Part shown: positions 1-20,055 of the stretch, piece by piece
Numbering within the stretch: the stretch's first letter is position 1
Layout of the letters: the number at the start of each line of letters is the position of its first letter
DNA from: Lachnospiraceae bacterium
GTDB taxonomy: Bacteria > Bacillota > Clostridia > Lachnospirales > Lachnospiraceae
Direction: 5' to 3'
Assembly (NCBI GenBank): GCA_017548765.1
Contig: JAFYZH010000072.1
Location: 1-58,433 of the forward strand
Length of the DNA: 58,433 bases
The notes under the pieces: generated by a model
The model's database searches: none
What the model was told of the DNA's origin: nothing
What the model saw: the letters and a program-made list of their open reading frames with translations, nothing else
Program-made: the position numbers and the translations under genes

Positions 1-110
1 AGATGAGATATCCATATCAGACCCCTTGAAGACGACGAGGAGATAGGGCAGAGGTGGAAGCACAGTAATGTGTTAAGCTGACTGTTACTAATAGGTCGAA
101 AGCTTGATCT
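1..110 (+). rRNA. 23S ribosomal RNA, 3' end (partial)
   Basis: The window opens inside the 3' end of a 23S rRNA gene. The stretch reads like helices 100-101 of domain VI, with the conserved run ACTAATAGGTCGA near 88-99 and a tail ending around 110. The rest of the gene lies before the window. No 5S gene follows; the next RNA gene is tRNA-Asn about 107 bp downstream, so the rRNA and tRNAs are probably one transcript. The exact mature end is an estimate. Confidence 0.9.
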
Positions 111-136
111 ATGGTTTAAAGCGCTGAAGGAAGTTC

Positions 137-159
137 GTCAAGGGCGTAAGCCCTTTGAC
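137..159 (+). other. Hairpin between 23S rRNA and tRNA-Asn
   Basis: GTCAAGGGC pairs with GCCCTTTGAC across a GTAA loop, with one bulged T. It sits about 27 nt past the 23S 3' end and is not followed by a T run, so an rRNA-tRNA processing stem is more likely than a terminator. A second small hairpin (GAAGGTG/CACTTTC) lies at 191-208. The processing role is inferred. Confidence 0.55.
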
Positions 160-216
160 ATAGTCTACTCAATGATCTATATGCAGTTTTGAAGGTGTAA
201 ACACTTTCATGAGTTT

Positions 217-289
217 TCCTCGATAGCTCAGTCGGTAGAGCACGCGGCTGTTAACCGCGCTGTCGTAGGTTCGAGTCCTACTCGGGGAG
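217..289 (+). tRNA. tRNA-Asn (GTT)
   Basis: Full cloverleaf. The acceptor arms TCCTCGA and TCGGGGA pair with one wobble, the anticodon loop is CTGTTAA, and the T arm contains GGTTCGAGTCC. The 3' CCA is not encoded. First tRNA of the cluster following the 23S gene. Confidence 0.97.
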
Positions 290-349
290 CACATCGGATA
301 TTATTCCGATAACATTTAACGTCGAAGGTTTCCTTCGATCTGATCATTT

Positions 350-421
350 GGCCCCATGGTCAAGCGGTTAAGACATCGCCCTTTCACGGCGGTAACAGGG
401 GTCCGAATCCCCTTGGGGTCA
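350..421 (+). tRNA. tRNA-Glu (TTC)
   Basis: Acceptor GGCCCCA pairs with TGGGGTC, the anticodon loop is CTTTCAC, and the T arm contains GGTCCGAATCC. CCA is not encoded. A perfect 11-bp hairpin follows at 424-450. Confidence 0.97.
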
Positions 422-423
422 TT

Positions 424-450
424 GTAATAGATCGCAGAGCGATCTATTAC
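424..450 (+). other. Perfect hairpin in tRNA-Glu/tRNA-Thr spacer
   Basis: GTAATAGATCG and CGATCTATTAC form an 11-bp perfect stem with a 5-nt loop, starting 3 nt after the tRNA-Glu discriminator base. No T run follows, so it is not a standard terminator. Similar hairpins follow tRNA-Asp and tRNA-His. Confidence 0.7.
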
Positions 451-469
451 GTGAGAAATTATACTGTAG

Positions 470-542
470 GCCGATGTGGCTCAATTGGCAGAGCAGCTGA
501 TTTGTAATCAGCAGGTTATCGGTTCGAGTCCGATCATCGGCT
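470..542 (+). tRNA. tRNA-Thr (TGT)
   Basis: Acceptor GCCGATG pairs with CATCGGC, the anticodon loop is TTTGTAA, and the T arm contains GGTTCGAGTCC. CCA is not encoded. Confidence 0.97.
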
Positions 543-558
543 TCATACATTACCACCT

Positions 559-632
559 GGACCTTTAGCTCAGTTGGTTAGAGCAACCGGCTCATAACCG
601 GTCGGTCCCGGGTTCGAGTCCCCGAAGGTCCA
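559..632 (+). tRNA. tRNA with CAT anticodon (Met elongator or Ile2)
   Basis: Acceptor GGACCTT pairs with AAGGTCC, and the anticodon loop is CTCATAA. It is not the initiator, which normally starts with CGCGGGG in this phylum. The 5' half, GGACCTTTAGCTCAGTTGG, resembles from memory the Bacillus Ile2 tRNA whose C34 becomes lysidine and reads AUA. Sequence alone cannot fully separate Ile2 from elongator Met. Confidence 0.9.
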
Positions 633-658
633 CGATAACCCAGGGGTTTGAAATATTT

Positions 659-732
659 GGCCCAGTGGCTCAGTTGGTTAGAGCGCCGCCCTGTCACGGC
701 GGAGGTCACGAGTTCGAATCTCGTCTGGGTCG
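659..732 (+). tRNA. tRNA-Asp (GTC)
   Basis: Acceptor GGCCCAG pairs with CTGGGTC with one wobble, the anticodon loop is CTGTCAC, and the T arm contains GAGTTCGAATC. CCA is not encoded. A 124-bp hairpin-rich spacer separates it from tRNA-Val. Confidence 0.97.
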
Positions 733-738
733 TTGCGA

Positions 739-845
739 AAGATTTGCGAAGCAAATCTTCCGCTCGAGAAAATATCCTCTAAGCGAGATGCGGTAGCATC
801 GAGATTAGGATATTTTCGAGCAACTTCGGTTTGCGTCGTAAACCG
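739..845 (+). other. Hairpin-rich spacer element between tRNA-Asp and tRNA-Val
   Basis: Three stems lie in a row. The first is AAGATTTGC/GCAAATCTT (739-759, perfect). The second is a long stem (762-821) in which GCTCGA plus AAAATATCCT pairs with AGGATATTTTCGAGC around one bulged G, with an inner GATGC-GGTA-GCATC stem. The third is CGGTTT/AAACCG (827-845). There is no terminator T run. The middle stem and its 3' tail TTTTCGAGCAA recur in the spacer after tRNA-His (12382-12470). Function unknown; a processing or stability element is possible. Confidence 0.65.
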
Positions 846-856
846 GCAGCTGATTT

Positions 857-929
857 GGGGTCTTAGCTCAGCTGGGAGAGCATCTGCCTTACAAGCAGAG
901 GGTCATAGGTTCGAGCCCTATAGGCCCCA
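857..929 (+). tRNA. tRNA-Val (TAC)
   Basis: Acceptor GGGGTCT pairs with AGGCCCC with one wobble, the anticodon loop is CTTACAA, and the T arm contains GGTTCGAGCC. CCA is not encoded. Confidence 0.97.
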
Positions 930-1002
930 TTCGTACCGATCTTGCACCCGCATAACTTCGGTACACGCGTCCCACAGATCATTCTGTGGCAGTCCTATGT
1001 AA

Positions 1003-1088
1003 GCCGGCGTGGCGGAATAGGCAGACGCACAGGACTTAAAATCCTGCGGGTAGCGATACCCGTACCGGTTCGATTCCGGTCGCCGGCA
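1003..1088 (+). tRNA. tRNA-Leu (TAA)
   Basis: A class II tRNA with a long variable arm (GCGGGTAGCGATACCCGT). Acceptor GCCGGCG pairs with CGCCGGC and the anticodon loop is CTTAAAA. CCA is not encoded. Confidence 0.97.
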
Positions 1089-1104
1089 TACCTCAATTTA
1101 ATAT

Positions 1105-1178
<74 letters not shown>

Positions 1179-1189
1179 CTACTTTGAAA

Positions 1190-12070: not shown

Positions 12071-12145
12071 CGGGGTGTGGCTCAGTTTGGCTAGAGCACC
12101 TGGTTTGGGACCAGGGGGTCGCAGGTTCGAATCCTGTCACCCCGA
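12071..12145 (+). tRNA. tRNA-Pro (TGG)
   Basis: Acceptor CGGGGTG pairs with CACCCCG, and the anticodon loop is TTTGGGA. CCA is not encoded. Confidence 0.97.
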
Positions 12146-12155
12146 TACAACGTTT

Positions 12156-12226
12156 GCGGGTGTAGTTCAATGGTAGAACACTAGCCTTCCAAGCTAGATA
12201 CGTGGGTTCGATTCCCATCACCCGCT
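12156..12226 (+). tRNA. tRNA-Gly (TCC)
   Basis: Acceptor GCGGGTG pairs with CACCCGC, the anticodon loop is CTTCCAA, and the D loop is short. CCA is not encoded. Confidence 0.97.
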
Positions 12227-12304
12227 TTTGCGGTATCGATCGAGTGGGAGCTGTCCTGATATTCAAAGGGTGGCTTTTTTCTTAAGAGTCGCATCAACAC
12301 GCAT

Positions 12305-12379
12305 GGTGGGTATAGCACAGCTGGTTAGCGCGTCAGATTGTGGTTCTGAAGGTCCAGGGTTCGAATCCCTGTACCCACC
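12305..12379 (+). tRNA. tRNA-His (GTG)
   Basis: Acceptor GTGGGTA pairs with TACCCAC. The genomic G at 12305 faces C at 12379, giving the G-1:C73 pair expected of tRNA-His. The anticodon loop is TTGTGGT. Confidence 0.97.
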
Positions 12380-12381
12380 CT

Positions 12382-12470
12382 ATTACAGATTTTGCACGAA
12401 ATCTGTAATTCGAGAAAAATCTTCGAATAAGGCACGCCGATGCCGAAATGAGAAGATATTTCGAGCAAGT
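12382..12470 (+). other. Hairpin-rich spacer element after tRNA-His
   Basis: ATTACAGATTT pairs perfectly with AAATCTGTAAT (12382-12409). A second stem, TTCGAGAAAAATCTTC with GAAGATATTTCGAGC, follows (12409-12466) with an inner GGCA/TGCC. It then runs into CAAGTTTCGG. The order, the CGAGAAA left arm and the TTTCGAGCAA tail match the spacer after tRNA-Asp at 739-845. Confidence 0.65.
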
Positions 12471-12502
12471 TTCGGATCGGAAATATTTCGAGACTTTACG
12501 AC

Positions 12503-12527
12503 GGTGAGGCGATTTCGCCGTTTTTTT
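12503..12527 (+). terminator. Intrinsic terminator between tRNA-His and tRNA-Gln
   Basis: GGCG and CGCC with an ATTT loop are followed by G and seven T. It should end or attenuate the Pro-Gly-His transcript. No obvious separate promoter precedes tRNA-Gln, so partial readthrough is likely. Confidence 0.7.
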
Positions 12528-12549
12528 ACTGTCTGCGGACGGTGCATAA

Positions 12550-12621
12550 AGGGCTATCGCCAAGGGGTAAGGCACAAGATTTTGATTCTTGTATTCGCTG
12601 GTTCAAATCCAGCTAGCCCTG
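12550..12621 (+). tRNA. tRNA-Gln (TTG)
   Basis: Acceptor AGGGCTA pairs with TAGCCCT, and the anticodon loop is TTTTGAT. CCA is not encoded. A second Gln isoacceptor (CTG) lies at 30926. Confidence 0.96.
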
Positions 12622-12661
12622 CTCGGGGTGCTTACTTTGCACACCGTTCAGAAAAACATAT

Positions 12662-12734
12662 GGGGCACTAGCTCAGTCGGTAGAGCACTTGACTTTTAAT
12701 CAAGTTGTCGCGGGTTCGATTCCCGCGTGCCTCA
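12662..12734 (+). tRNA. tRNA-Lys (TTT)
   Basis: Acceptor GGGGCAC pairs with GTGCCTC with one wobble, and the anticodon loop is CTTTTAA. CCA is not encoded. Last tRNA of the cluster. Confidence 0.97.
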
Positions 12735-12742
12735 TGAAAGAT

Positions 12743-18355: not shown

Positions 18356-19543
18356 ATGATCAATCAGACCTATAAGGCGATGCTGCAGAATAAGTCGGTC
18401 ATTCGCCAGATGAGTGAGTATGCAACGAAGCGGAAGCAGGAGATCGGAGCGGAAAATGTCTTCGATTTCAGCCTGGGTAATCCCAGCGTTCCCTGCCCCG
18501 AGGACTATACAAAGAAGACGATCGAGCTGCTGCAGACGCAGGACCCGATGACACTGCACGGCTACAGCCCGTCGCTGACATTGCCCCAGGTGCGCGCCGC
18601 AGTTGCGAAGAGCCTGAACGAGCGTTTCGGCATGGACTACAAGATGGAGCACATCTTCATGACGAGCGGCGCTGCCGGCGCGATCGCGCATGCGGTCCGT
18701 GCGGTAACGAAGCCCGGCGACGAGGTGCTGACATTCGCCCCGTTCTTCCCGGAGTACCATCCGTACGTCGACCAGACGGGTGCGGTCCTGAAGGTCGTTC
18801 CGGCCAATACTGCGGATTTCCAGATCAATGTGGATGCCTTCGTTTCGATGCTGAACCCGAAGGTGGCGGCTGTCCTCATCAATACGCCGAACAATCCTTC
18901 CGGCATCGTGTATTCGGAGGAGACCATCTGCAAGCTCGCTGACATCCTGCGCGCGAAGCAGGAGGAGTACGGCCACGAGATCTTCATCATCAGTGATGAG
19001 CCGTACCGCGAGATCCAGTTCGACGGACGCAAGCCGCTCTATGTGAGCAAATACTATGACAATACGATCAGCTGCTATTCGTTCTCGAAGAGCCTGAGCC
19101 TGCCGGGCGAGCGTATCGGTTACGTGGCGGTGAATCCGCGCGCGGTCGATGCGGAGTACATCGTGCCCATGTGCGGCCAGATCAGCCGTGGTATCGGACA
19201 TAACTGCCCGTCGTCCCTCATTCAGCTGGGCGTGGCAGAGGTGCTCGATGAAACGAGCGACCTGTCGGTTTACGAGAAGAATATGAACATCCTGTACGAC
19301 AAACTTGTGGAGCTCGGCTTCACCGTAGTGCGCCCCGGCGGAACCTTCTACATCTTCCCGAAGGCCCTTGAGGAAGACTCCGTAGCCTTCTGTCAGAAGG
19401 CCCTCGAACTCGACCTCGTGATCGTACCCGGCGACAGCTTCGGTTGCCCCGGCTACTTCCGCATCGCCTACTGCGTCGACACTGACATGGTGATCCGCAG
19501 CCTGCCCAAATTCGAGCAGCTGGCAGCCCTCTACAAGAAATAA
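18356..19543 (+). CDS. PLP-dependent class I/II aminotransferase
   Basis: 395 aa fold-type I. FSLGNPSVP near the N-terminus, NTPNNPSGIVY, SDEPYREIQF and SFSKSLSLPGERIGY with Lys245 as the expected Schiff-base lysine. The arginine that binds the substrate carboxylate lies in YFRIAYC near the C-terminus. It resembles aspartate/aromatic aminotransferases (AspB subfamily). The amino donor cannot be fixed from sequence. It is the last gene of the 13872-19543 run. Confidence 0.88.
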   Translation: MINQTYKAMLQNKSVIRQMSEYATKRKQEIGAENVFDFSLGNPSVPCPEDYTKKTIELLQTQDPMTLHGYSPSLTLPQVRAAVAKSLNERFGMDYKMEHIFMTSGAAGAIAHAVRAVTKPGDEVLTFAPFFPEYHPYVDQTGAVLKVVPANTADFQINVDAFVSMLNPKVAAVLINTPNNPSGIVYSEETICKLADILRAKQEEYGHEIFIISDEPYREIQFDGRKPLYVSKYYDNTISCYSFSKSLSLPGERIGYVAVNPRAVDAEYIVPMCGQISRGIGHNCPSSLIQLGVAEVLDETSDLSVYEKNMNILYDKLVELGFTVVRPGGTFYIFPKALEEDSVAFCQKALELDLVIVPGDSFGCPGYFRIAYCVDTDMVIRSLPKFEQLAALYKK

Positions 19544-19562
19544 ACCGCATCGCGGCTTTTTT
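19544..19562 (+). terminator. Intrinsic terminator after the aminotransferase
   Basis: CCGC and GCGG with a three-base loop are followed by C and six T. The stem is short but the T run is good. It abuts the inverted-repeat element at 19563. Confidence 0.65.
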
Positions 19563-19991
19563 CGGAGCCTGCAGATACCGGCGGTCAGTTCACTGCGCTG
19601 TGATCATCTAGACGCTCGAACCAGATCCGGATTTCAGGGGGCCCGCTACGACTTCGGCCGTTTTCCTGATAGCGCCAGGCTCCCGCCTGACGCGAAAACG
19701 ACCTCAGCGTGCGCGAAAATCGATCTCGGAGATTCGATTTTCTCCCCTGATCCGGCTCCTCTCTCGCGAAGATGATCATCAGCTCGATCTCATGTCCGCC
19801 TTGCATCTGCAGGCTCCGTTATGCCTCGATGCGCCGTAACACTATGGCAGCCCGAAATCGCTGCCGTAGACAAATTCGATATATGGGGAGACGTAGACCG
19901 GTTCTGCGTCTCCTTCAAGATGTCCGGTGGCTTTGAAACGCCCGGCACCGTGTTCGCTTCCGGGGCGTGAACTGACCGCCGGTATCTGCAG
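19563..19991. repeat. Non-coding element with nested inverted repeats and serial hairpins
   Basis: No gene explains this 429-bp stretch. A perfect 24-bp inverted repeat bounds it (19569-19592 and 19968-19991). A second inverted repeat of 14 bp joins CGGAGCCTGCAGAT at 19563-19576 to its complement at 19805-19818. Between them lie stable hairpins: 19659-19700 (CGTTTTC/GAAAACG enclosing CAGGC/GCCTG), 19715-19742 (GAAAATCG/CGATTTTC), 19846-19865 (GGCAGC/GCTGCC), 19887-19913 (GGAGACG/CGTCTCC) and 19925-19950. No transposase, recombinase or clear target duplication is seen. It could be a MITE, an invertible segment or a structured RNA. Confidence 0.8.
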
Positions 19992-20004
19992 ACTATGGGA
20001 AAAG

Positions 20005-20055
20005 GCCCCGATGCGGGGCGAAGAAAAAATATAGCTGAGGGGCAGTCGTCTGCCC
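20005..20055 (+). other. Two hairpins in the leader of the MATE gene
   Basis: GCCCC/GGGGC (20005-20019) is followed on the minus strand by CCTTTT, so it may act as a weak terminator of antisense transcription. GGGCAG/CTGCCC with a TCGT loop (20040-20055) lies 15 nt before the MATE start codon and could mask its weak ribosome binding site. Confidence 0.45.

What the first reader, a model, noticed from the sequence alone, without database searches (positions are those of the whole stretch)
19563..19991. Non-coding element with nested inverted repeats and a chain of hairpins
A perfect 24-bp inverted repeat (19569-19592 / 19968-19991) encloses 375 bp. A second, 14-bp inverted repeat joins the outer left end (19563-19576) to the middle (19805-19818), so the same end sequence occurs three times in two orientations. 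At least five stable stems fill the interior. No gene, recombinase or target-site duplication accounts for it. Three readings fit: an invertible switch in front of the MATE exporter, a non-autonomous transposon (MITE), or a large structured RNA. On the minus strand a GGAG lies 7 nt before an ATG made by the inner repeat copy, opening a 73-codon frame (19806-19585).
Basis: partly seen in the sequence, partly recalled or inferred. Interest (0 to 1): 0.75.

Follow-up and report, generated by a model that had tools for sequence, protein, structure and literature searches.

The report
Mobile hairpin with mirrored host flanks
The marked stretch is one copy of a family of about 200-bp DNA hairpins, repeated some 20-30 times in each examined genome of one genus of rumen bacteria, that sit just after the ends of genes and are mostly flanked by a mirror-image copy of the neighbouring gene end, a signature that ordinary transposons do not leave.

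Summary
Window 19577-19804 is one copy ("core") of a non-coding repeat family found in all 6 examined genomes of one genus of rumen Lachnospiraceae (22-34 matches each, 159 in all) and in none of 55 other genomes of its family and order. The core folds into one branched hairpin kept by paired changes (156 double, 24 one-sided); three hand-chosen helices show no excess of G-U over A-C (48:59), which points to DNA-level maintenance. The gene on its 5' side points at the core in 102 of 122 cases. In most copies an inverted repeat private to the locus flanks the core: one arm is the gene's own 3' end, the other an inverted, decaying copy. Of 14 core-free sites at four loci, 6 align up to the core edge, and 5 of these leave no room for an inverted copy. 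Best reading: a mobile hairpin spread and maintained by fold-back, template-switching DNA synthesis; the enzyme is unknown. The finding's 24-bp repeat is the scar of a local inversion relative to two sister species; its 14-bp repeat is this copy's stem. The 73-codon frame is not conserved.

The parts
19577..19804 (+). Core: one copy of the genus-specific hairpin element
   Evidence: other copies in own genome, 64-91% identity; 43 copies aligned and folded; 159 matches in 6 genomes; fold
19563..19576 (+). Left half of this copy's locus-specific stem (14 bp)
   Evidence: in the listing of 127 copies the neighbouring 30 nt differ from locus to locus
19805..19818 (-). Right half of the locus-specific stem, perfect inverted repeat of 19563-19576
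19545..19562 (+). Terminator-like hairpin plus T run directly after the aminotransferase (read by eye); part of an inverted copy of 19967-20016
   Evidence: sequence; 19967-20016 matches 19545-19593 in reverse at 86%
19569..19592 (+). Left arm of the perfect 24-bp inverted repeat: end of core plus arm, present twice because of the inversion
   Evidence: window 19545-19970 = G003 955-531 reversed, 19967-20026 = G003 906-965 direct
19968..19991 (-). Right arm of the perfect 24-bp inverted repeat
19819..19967 (-). Relic of arm sequence; in G003 and G005 the homologous stretch joins this element to a second, opposite-facing one whose core is missing here
   Evidence: 83% to G003 and G005 in reverse orientation over 19545-19970
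18356..19543 (+). Host gene whose 3' end faces the element: class I/II aminotransferase
   Evidence: PF00155, 171 bits
20070..21488 (+). Next gene downstream: MATE-family exporter (likely start 20070)
   Evidence: PF01554, 147 bits

Best explanation
Window 19577-19804 is a copy of a non-coding, apparently non-autonomous mobile DNA hairpin of one genus of rumen Lachnospiraceae. SHOWN: many copies per genome at different gene ends; core-free sites in relatives; one conserved branched fold; a strong orientation bias after a gene's 3' end; in most copies a private inverted repeat whose one arm is the host gene's own 3' end (terminator, in some copies the last codons) and whose other arm is an inverted copy; different core types at one locus in different species beside the same gene-side arm; inversion of the segment in this window relative to two sister species. 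INFERRED: a new copy is made by DNA synthesis that starts from a target 3' end beyond a terminator, copies a core, folds back through the complementary core ends (CGGnCA...TGCCCG) onto the strand just made, copies back about 100-150 nt of target, and rejoins the far side. The same template switching later keeps stems matched and flips spacers, which produced the 24-bp repeat of the finding. The polymerase or nuclease responsible is not identified.
For: Copies: 159 matches (partial ones included) in 6 of 6 genus genomes; 0 of 55 others by DNA search with the window core; 127 full-length copies retrieved. Mobility: the most similar core lies at a different locus for 69 of 127; at four loci the core is present in 10 and absent in 14 of 24 genome sites. 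At 6 of these 14 the gene-side flank aligns to within 46 bp of the core or past its edge; at 5 of the 6 at most 31 bp (or an overlap) stand where the occupied site holds core plus inverted copy. In G004 at locus 1 the sequence is contiguous where G003 carries 353 extra bp. Arms: own arms exceed the 95% point of a cross-locus null in 93 of 114 copies with long flanks; 94 of 105 palindromic regions in 633 kb overlap a core, in regions chosen around cores. Arm homology exceeds its null in the 60 nt before the stop codon in 47 of 70, in the last 60 coding nt in 22 of 70, and in the next three 60-nt blocks in 3, 4 and 6 of 70. Orientation 102 of 122; inside genes 0 of 127 (own gene caller). Fold: 25 of 34 pairs with double changes, 0 of 500 shuffles as high. 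DNA level: G-U 48, A-C 59 of 4165 cells in three hand-chosen helices; 16 tRNAs gave G-U 16, A-C 0 of 344. Core exchange: at locus 1 G000 and G003 share the left arm at 94% and the core at 79%; G000 and G005 share the core at 96%. Inversion. Template switching is known to homogenise inverted repeats, make hairpins and invert spacers (abstracts of PMC8604942 and PMC8794818).
Against: No insertion was observed and no enzyme is tied to the family. 21 of 114 copies, the window copy among them (score 23.0, null 95% 26.5), do not exceed the cross-locus null. At 8 of 14 core-free sites, both core-free sites of locus 2 included, the gene-side arm is not alignable near the core, so they do not show which arm is native. 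At locus 1 the core-free G002 carries TGCGATCGACGGCGG, a motif seen beside cores elsewhere, so it may be a relic; at locus 4 G003 keeps the far part of the inverted copy and looks like a deletion relic. Overlaps of 14 bp (locus 3, G001) and 11 bp (locus 4, G003) could be direct duplications. The automatic 59-pair fold of 127 cores gave G-U 292 against A-C 161, and the distal arms gave 343:249; both lean towards RNA. The tRNA control is small, and ARAGORN itself favours paired stems. Twenty of 122 copies have a left neighbour pointing away.
Confidence: 0.58

Rival explanations
1. REPIN/BIME-like element moved by a REP-associated tyrosine transposase (RAYT): inverted REPs plus a long loop, mobilised as a single-stranded hairpin.
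For: RAYT genes in 3 of 6 genus genomes, flanked by inverted GTGACA..GGGGACGGTTCT..TGTCAC REPs. A REP motif lies within 220 bp on both sides of 21 of 114 cores and on at least one side of 42; GGGGACGGTWC occurs 87 times in the fetched 633 kb. Hairpin DNA without wobble preference suits a single-strand DNA mechanism.
Against: PF01797 was not found in 3 of 6 draft genomes, the window's own among them, which still hold 23-25 core matches each. 72 of 114 cores have no REP motif within 220 bp. At locus 3 a REP-like hairpin is already present in the core-free relative, so there it looks like target. The ends here are locus-specific; that REPINs share their ends is recalled.
Confidence: 0.12
2. Structured RNA retroelement (a bacterial SINE analogue) copied by the genus's UG26 reverse transcriptase, with snap-back synthesis giving the inverted arm.
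For: A UG26-type RT (PADLOC 562 bits for the G000 protein) has one match in each of the 6 genus genomes and in only 3 of 55 others, one of these weak (G032, 28-29%). Snap-back DNA synthesis is described for G2L4 RT, a distant relative by sequence (passages of PMC12337344). Core orientation follows transcription. Distal arms show some G-U excess.
Against: No core was found within the fetched 6.5-9.5 kb around the RT of the six genomes; the RT has its own conserved leader (by eye). Two genomes with clear UG26 relatives, G009 and G014, gave no significant core match by covariance model. The chosen helices show no G-U excess. The association is one genus, hence one phylogenetic point.
Confidence: 0.15
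3. Selected 3'-end structure (insulator or bidirectional terminator) at gene ends, with arms kept paired by selection rather than made by insertion.
For: 0 of 127 copies inside genes, strong orientation bias; in inner arms of 32 orthologous pairs 25 double-compensated changes, against 22 G-U, 25 A-C and 31 other one-sided and 12 other two-sided changes.
Against: In most of the 17 arm alignments that I read by eye the right-arm terminator is broken, though L024 and L046 keep a hairpin; cores are present or absent between close species; arm homology runs past the stop codon in 22 of 70, which selection on termination does not need.
Confidence: 0.08
4. Invertible phase switch controlling the MATE exporter.
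For: Orientation differs between species: G000 and the G002 relic one way, G003 and G005 the other.
Against: One orientation per assembly, the same family at many other loci, and G001 has the gene pair with no element at all. No recombinase search was made.
Confidence: 0.03

Closest known systems
REPINs / REP-BIME elements with RAYT transposases (PMC3116915, abstract and outline seen)
   Same: Short non-coding extragenic hairpins in many copies, inverted arrangement, dispersed within the genome; a RAYT/REP system exists in 3 of 6 genus genomes
   Different: Longer conserved branched core, ends differ at each locus, arms are host gene ends, copies also in genomes where no RAYT gene was found
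Prokaryotic MITEs (review PMC10969869, search listing only)
   Same: Short, non-coding, multicopy, intergenic, inverted repeats at both sides
   Different: No terminal repeat shared between copies, no consistent direct target duplication, no parent transposon identified; an inverted copy of the target instead
Double-hairpin elements of organelle genomes (search listing only; mobility and paired change recalled)
   Same: Mobile-looking DNA hairpins conserved in structure while the sequence changes in pairs
   Different: Those are small and organellar; here a 200-bp branched core in bacterial genomes with arms drawn from the host gene
Quasipalindrome / template-switch mutation (PMC8604942 abstract and outline, PMC8794818 abstract, opening text and outline)
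   Same: Makes and repairs inverted repeats, changes both sides of a stem at once, inverts spacers
   Different: Known as a local mutation process, not as a way for a sequence family to spread (to my knowledge)
Group II intron-like G2L4 RT with snap-back synthesis (PMC12337344, passages seen)
   Same: Biochemical precedent for the fold-back step by an RT; the genus carries an RT of the UG26 group
   Different: UG26 is another group, listed among defence RTs in PADLOC; no link to this element shown

Membership tests
MITE | Terminal inverted repeats shared between copies | tested here: not met
   Flanks next to 127 cores differ from locus to locus; only the core ends and a loose ATRCGATC-like preference recur, by eye; flanks of different loci rarely match (cross-locus null)
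MITE | Direct target-site duplication | tested here: inconclusive
   No overlap at locus 1 (G002, G004) or locus 4 (G005); overlaps of 14 bp at locus 3 (G001) and 11 bp at locus 4 (G003); locus 2 uninformative because 100 bp of the core-free site do not align
MITE | Short, non-coding, multicopy, core-free sites in relatives | tested here: met
MITE | Related autonomous transposon in the genome | not tested
REPIN (RAYT-dependent) | Matching RAYT gene in the genome | tested here: not met
   PF01797 in 3 of 6 draft genomes, not found in the window's own
REPIN (RAYT-dependent) | Two inverted copies of one REP forming the stem | tested here: not met
   REP motif on both sides within 220 bp in 21 of 114 copies
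Known structured RNA (Rfam 15) | Match to a covariance model | tested here: not met
   No match at gathering score; one match at E 3.3, taken as chance
Structured RNA in general | Covarying helices | tested here: met
   25 of 34 pairs with double changes; 0 of 500 shuffles as high
Structured RNA in general | Tolerance of G-U over A-C mismatches | tested here: inconclusive
   48:59 in three hand-chosen helices; 292:161 in the automatic 59-pair fold; tRNA control 16:0
Phase-variable invertible segment | Both orientations in one population | not testable with these tools
   Assemblies only; orientation differs between species
Phase-variable invertible segment | Dedicated recombinase | not tested
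   No search for recombinases was made
UG26 RT-dependent retroelement | Element present wherever the RT is, and RT activity required | tested here: inconclusive
   RT in 6 of 6 genus genomes, but no significant core match in G009 or G014, which carry UG26 relatives; activity not testable

The most novel reading that the evidence does not exclude
A new kind of bacterial mobile DNA whose hallmark is an INVERTED target duplication: the hairpin core is copied onto a 3' end downstream of a terminator, snaps back through its own complementary ends, and copies the host gene end in reverse before rejoining, so that each copy sits at the tip of a private palindrome made from its host. Template switching then maintains stems, exchanges cores between sites and flips them. 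It may need no dedicated transposase, only host polymerases, or it may use the genus's UG26 reverse transcriptase.
Probability: 0.35. Interest if true: 0.88.

Novelty: new variant of a known kind. Interest (0 to 1): 0.64.

Why it matters
Direct target duplications are the usual fingerprint of transposition (general knowledge); a repeat family that mirrors 100-150 bp of its host gene end would be a different fingerprint and would imply a fold-back route of spread. It also warns that very clean covariation can be kept at the DNA level, so covariation alone need not prove a functional RNA. Because copies, core-free sites, relics and an inversion all exist in six related genomes, the steps can be tested directly.

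Tried and rejected
Rfam at gathering and permissive thresholds: nothing relevant. The 73-codon frame: interrupted in 6 of 7 chosen near copies and no Pfam match. Phages and plasmids (distant DNA search with the window core) and viral contigs (one exact pattern): no match. Covariance-model search of six other genomes of the family: best E 0.215, taken as chance. RAYT as the mover: found in 3 of 6 genomes. General flipping of cores between orthologous loci: 21 apparent flips; several loci hold two opposite elements and the arms match at only 59-83% in either sense, so I did not resolve them one by one and count only the window locus as an inversion. A first survey for palindromes missed those that run through their own centre and was replaced. 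First arm statistics on 48 copies were superseded. Literature: a search for inverted target-site duplication and similar phrases listed 15 of 145 papers, all for the phrase 'inverted duplication of target', nearly all on plant microRNAs; other searches. That I know of nothing like this in print rests on these searches of one open-access library.

After a check of this report against the calls I mended: core-free sites (14 of 24, with only 6 alignable to the core edge), the overlap at locus 4 against G003, the absence of any recombinase search, and the counts of REPs; confidence in the best explanation was lowered from 0.60 to 0.58 for the first of these.

Rows dropped: of 153 core hits in the fetched pieces, 26 partial ones were left out of the 127; 13 of 127 lacked 310-bp flanks; 70 of 127 met the geometry; 82 copies with arm score 30 or more were used for the arm mismatch counts; 32 hand-picked orthologous pairs were used, drawn from the 54 and the clusters, two of them with no aligned right arm. 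In one search the first look left 690-765 candidates per genome, of which 150 were scored.

Full report
WHAT WAS CHECKED. Both inverted repeats of the finding are at the stated coordinates, and the stretch 19563-19818 folds into one branched hairpin more stable than all 200 shuffles, as DNA (z -7.8) or RNA (z -9.0). The stretch lies between a class I/II aminotransferase (18356-19543) and a MATE exporter (PF00155 and PF01554).

A MULTICOPY FAMILY. A search of the window's own genome (G000, 2.6 Mb, 106 contigs) with 19540-20010 found many further places matching about 19577-19804, at 64-91% identity. I call this the core. In a DNA search of 61 genomes, all 6 of the genus have it and 0 of 55 others do. 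A covariance model from 43 aligned copies finds 23, 25, 31, 22, 24 and 34 matches, partial ones included, in G000-G005, 159 in all. In six genomes of other genera it gave nothing better than E 0.215; phages, plasmids and viral contigs gave none.

FOLD. Over 43 copies, 34 consensus pairs form a standard pair in 95.1% of cells; 25 pairs have a change on both sides; cells with both sides changed number 156 against 37.9 on average in shuffles (0 of 500 as high), and sliding the partners destroys the signal. One-sided changes are rare: 24 cells, 16 of them in two weak helices. Such paired change normally argues for an RNA, but in three helices that I chose for good alignment, over 127 copies, G-U (48) is no commoner than A-C (59) among 4165 cells, whereas 16 tRNAs from the same sequences give 16 G-U and no A-C in 344 pairs (a small control, from a program that favours paired stems). 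Against this, the automatic 59-pair fold gives 292 G-U and 161 A-C (one pair alone is T-G in 114 of 127 copies), and the distal parts of the arms give 343:249, the proximal parts 83:94. I read the balance as maintenance at the DNA level, moderately supported.

POSITION AND ARMS. By my own codon-usage gene caller, none of 127 full-length copies lies in a gene; where a gene is present on the 5' side within the fetched stretch it points towards the core in 102 of 122, and the median distance to that neighbour is 109 bp. The sequence next to the core differs from locus to locus but is, in most copies, matched on the other side (by eye, by score). Against a null that pairs the left flank of one copy with the right flank of another, 93 of 114 copies exceed the 95% point, and 99 of 114 exceed the best of 342 shuffles. 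The window copy is one of those that do not exceed the first (score 23.0). In 633 kb fetched around cores, 94 of 105 palindromic regions overlap a core, and 94 of 131 full-size cores have a palindrome reaching at least 30 bp beyond both ends. Seventeen arm alignments read by eye show what the arms are: the 5' arm is the host gene's 3' end with a terminator-like hairpin; the 3' arm is its inverted copy, in which the hairpin is broken in most but not all (L024 and L046 keep one). Homology exceeds its null in the 60 nt before the stop codon in 47 of 70 copies, in the last 60 coding nt in 22 of 70, and in the next three 60-nt blocks in 3, 4 and 6 of 70.

CORE-FREE SITES. Four loci were followed through all six genomes: the core is present at 10 and absent at 14 of 24 sites. 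At 6 of the 14 the gene-side flank aligns to within 46 bp of the core or past its edge. Locus 1: G004 is contiguous (0 bp) where G003 carries 353 extra bp (core plus a 148-bp inverted copy); G002 has 31 bp there but keeps a motif seen beside cores elsewhere, so it may be a relic. Locus 3: G001 has gene, REP-like hairpin and the next gene's leader without core or inverted copy; the two alignments overlap by 14 bp. Locus 4: G005 has 21 bp and G004 11 bp in place of core and inverted copy; G003 lacks the core but keeps the far part of the inverted copy (alignments overlap by 11 bp) and looks like a deletion relic. At the other 8 sites, both core-free sites of locus 2 included, the region near the core is too diverged to align. 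So at three loci the gene-side arm is present in core-free relatives and the inverted arm goes with the core; at the fourth this could not be tested.

EXCHANGE AND MOVEMENT. For 69 of 127 cores the most similar core lies at another locus. At locus 1, G000 and G003 share a left arm at 94% but their cores at only 79%, while G000 and G005 share the core at 96%: cores are replaced inside standing arms.

THE WINDOW LOCUS. G001 has about 41 bp between the two genes and no element. G003 and G005 have two elements facing each other. In the window, 19545-19970 matches G003 positions 955-531 in reverse (83%), and 19967-20026 matches G003 906-965 directly (85%). So the segment is inverted relative to G003 and G005, the end of the core plus its arm is present twice in opposite orientation (this is the 24-bp repeat), and the core of the other element is gone. 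A relic in G002 lies in the window's orientation (80% over 19779-19883), so at least two changes seem to be needed (inference from sequence identities; no tree was built). The 14-bp repeat is the stem of this copy.

MECHANISM. Shown: the anatomy above. Inferred: DNA synthesis from a target 3' end beyond a terminator copies the core, folds back through the core's complementary ends, copies 100-150 nt of the target in reverse and rejoins. Template switching is known to homogenise inverted repeats and invert spacers (PMC8604942, abstract) and to make and maintain hairpins (PMC8794818, abstract and opening text). An alternative order, palindrome first and core later, is not excluded.

POSSIBLE HELPERS. 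RAYT genes were found in 3 of 6 genomes, and a REP motif flanks 21 of 114 cores on both sides. A reverse transcriptase of group UG26 (PADLOC, 562 bits for the G000 protein) has one match in each of the 6; PF00078 finds one further, different RT in G001. Other genomes with a match to it are G009 (41%), G014 (36%) and, weakly, G032. It has its own leader, conserved by eye, and no core nearby. A role for either is speculation.

VERDICT. A genus-specific mobile DNA hairpin family, new in its inverted copying of host gene ends, with the mechanism inferred and the enzyme unknown.

Noticed in passing
L283:3981-5392 and L284, L286-L289, L299, L300: A UG26-type reverse transcriptase, one match in each genus genome, is preceded by a leader that looks conserved by eye (GCGCCYGCGGTGGG...GCGGGCAATCCATCC...CCGGTA) and appears in diverged form before the related genes of two other genera: perhaps its own non-coding RNA.
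   Followed up: partly
L147, L148, L149: RAYT genes flanked by inverted GTGACA..GGGGACGGTTCT..TGTCAC repeats; GGGGACGGTWC occurs 87 times in the fetched genus sequence and the motif lies beside 42 of 114 cores.
   Followed up: partly
L271, L272 (some hundreds of bp after the core) and L280: A second hairpin type with a locus-specific stem (TATCAC...GTGATA) and a shared inner part (TGTCAAGGC...GCCTTGAC), again conserved tip and private stem.
   Followed up: no
right flanks of G003:C29:84125 and G005:C82:16750 (L224, L245): Tandem arrays of a short unit with AGCAGTA/TACTGCTGG inverted motifs beside the core.
   Followed up: no
L280: Tandem array with GTACCCTA/TAGGGTAC inverted motifs at the locus-4 position of G001.
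   Followed up: no
L143, L145: In G002 and G004 an open frame that looks like an XRE-type regulator sits directly after the aminotransferase (read by eye, not searched against families).
   Followed up: no
G003:C43:66470 and G005:C31:35606: 1184 bp of flank is 100% identical between two otherwise diverged species and stops being identical just after the terminator beside the core: perhaps a recent transfer with its edge at the element.
   Followed up: partly
window 1-1179 and 12071-12735: End of a 23S rRNA gene followed by a run of eight tRNAs, and a second run of five tRNAs.
   Followed up: no
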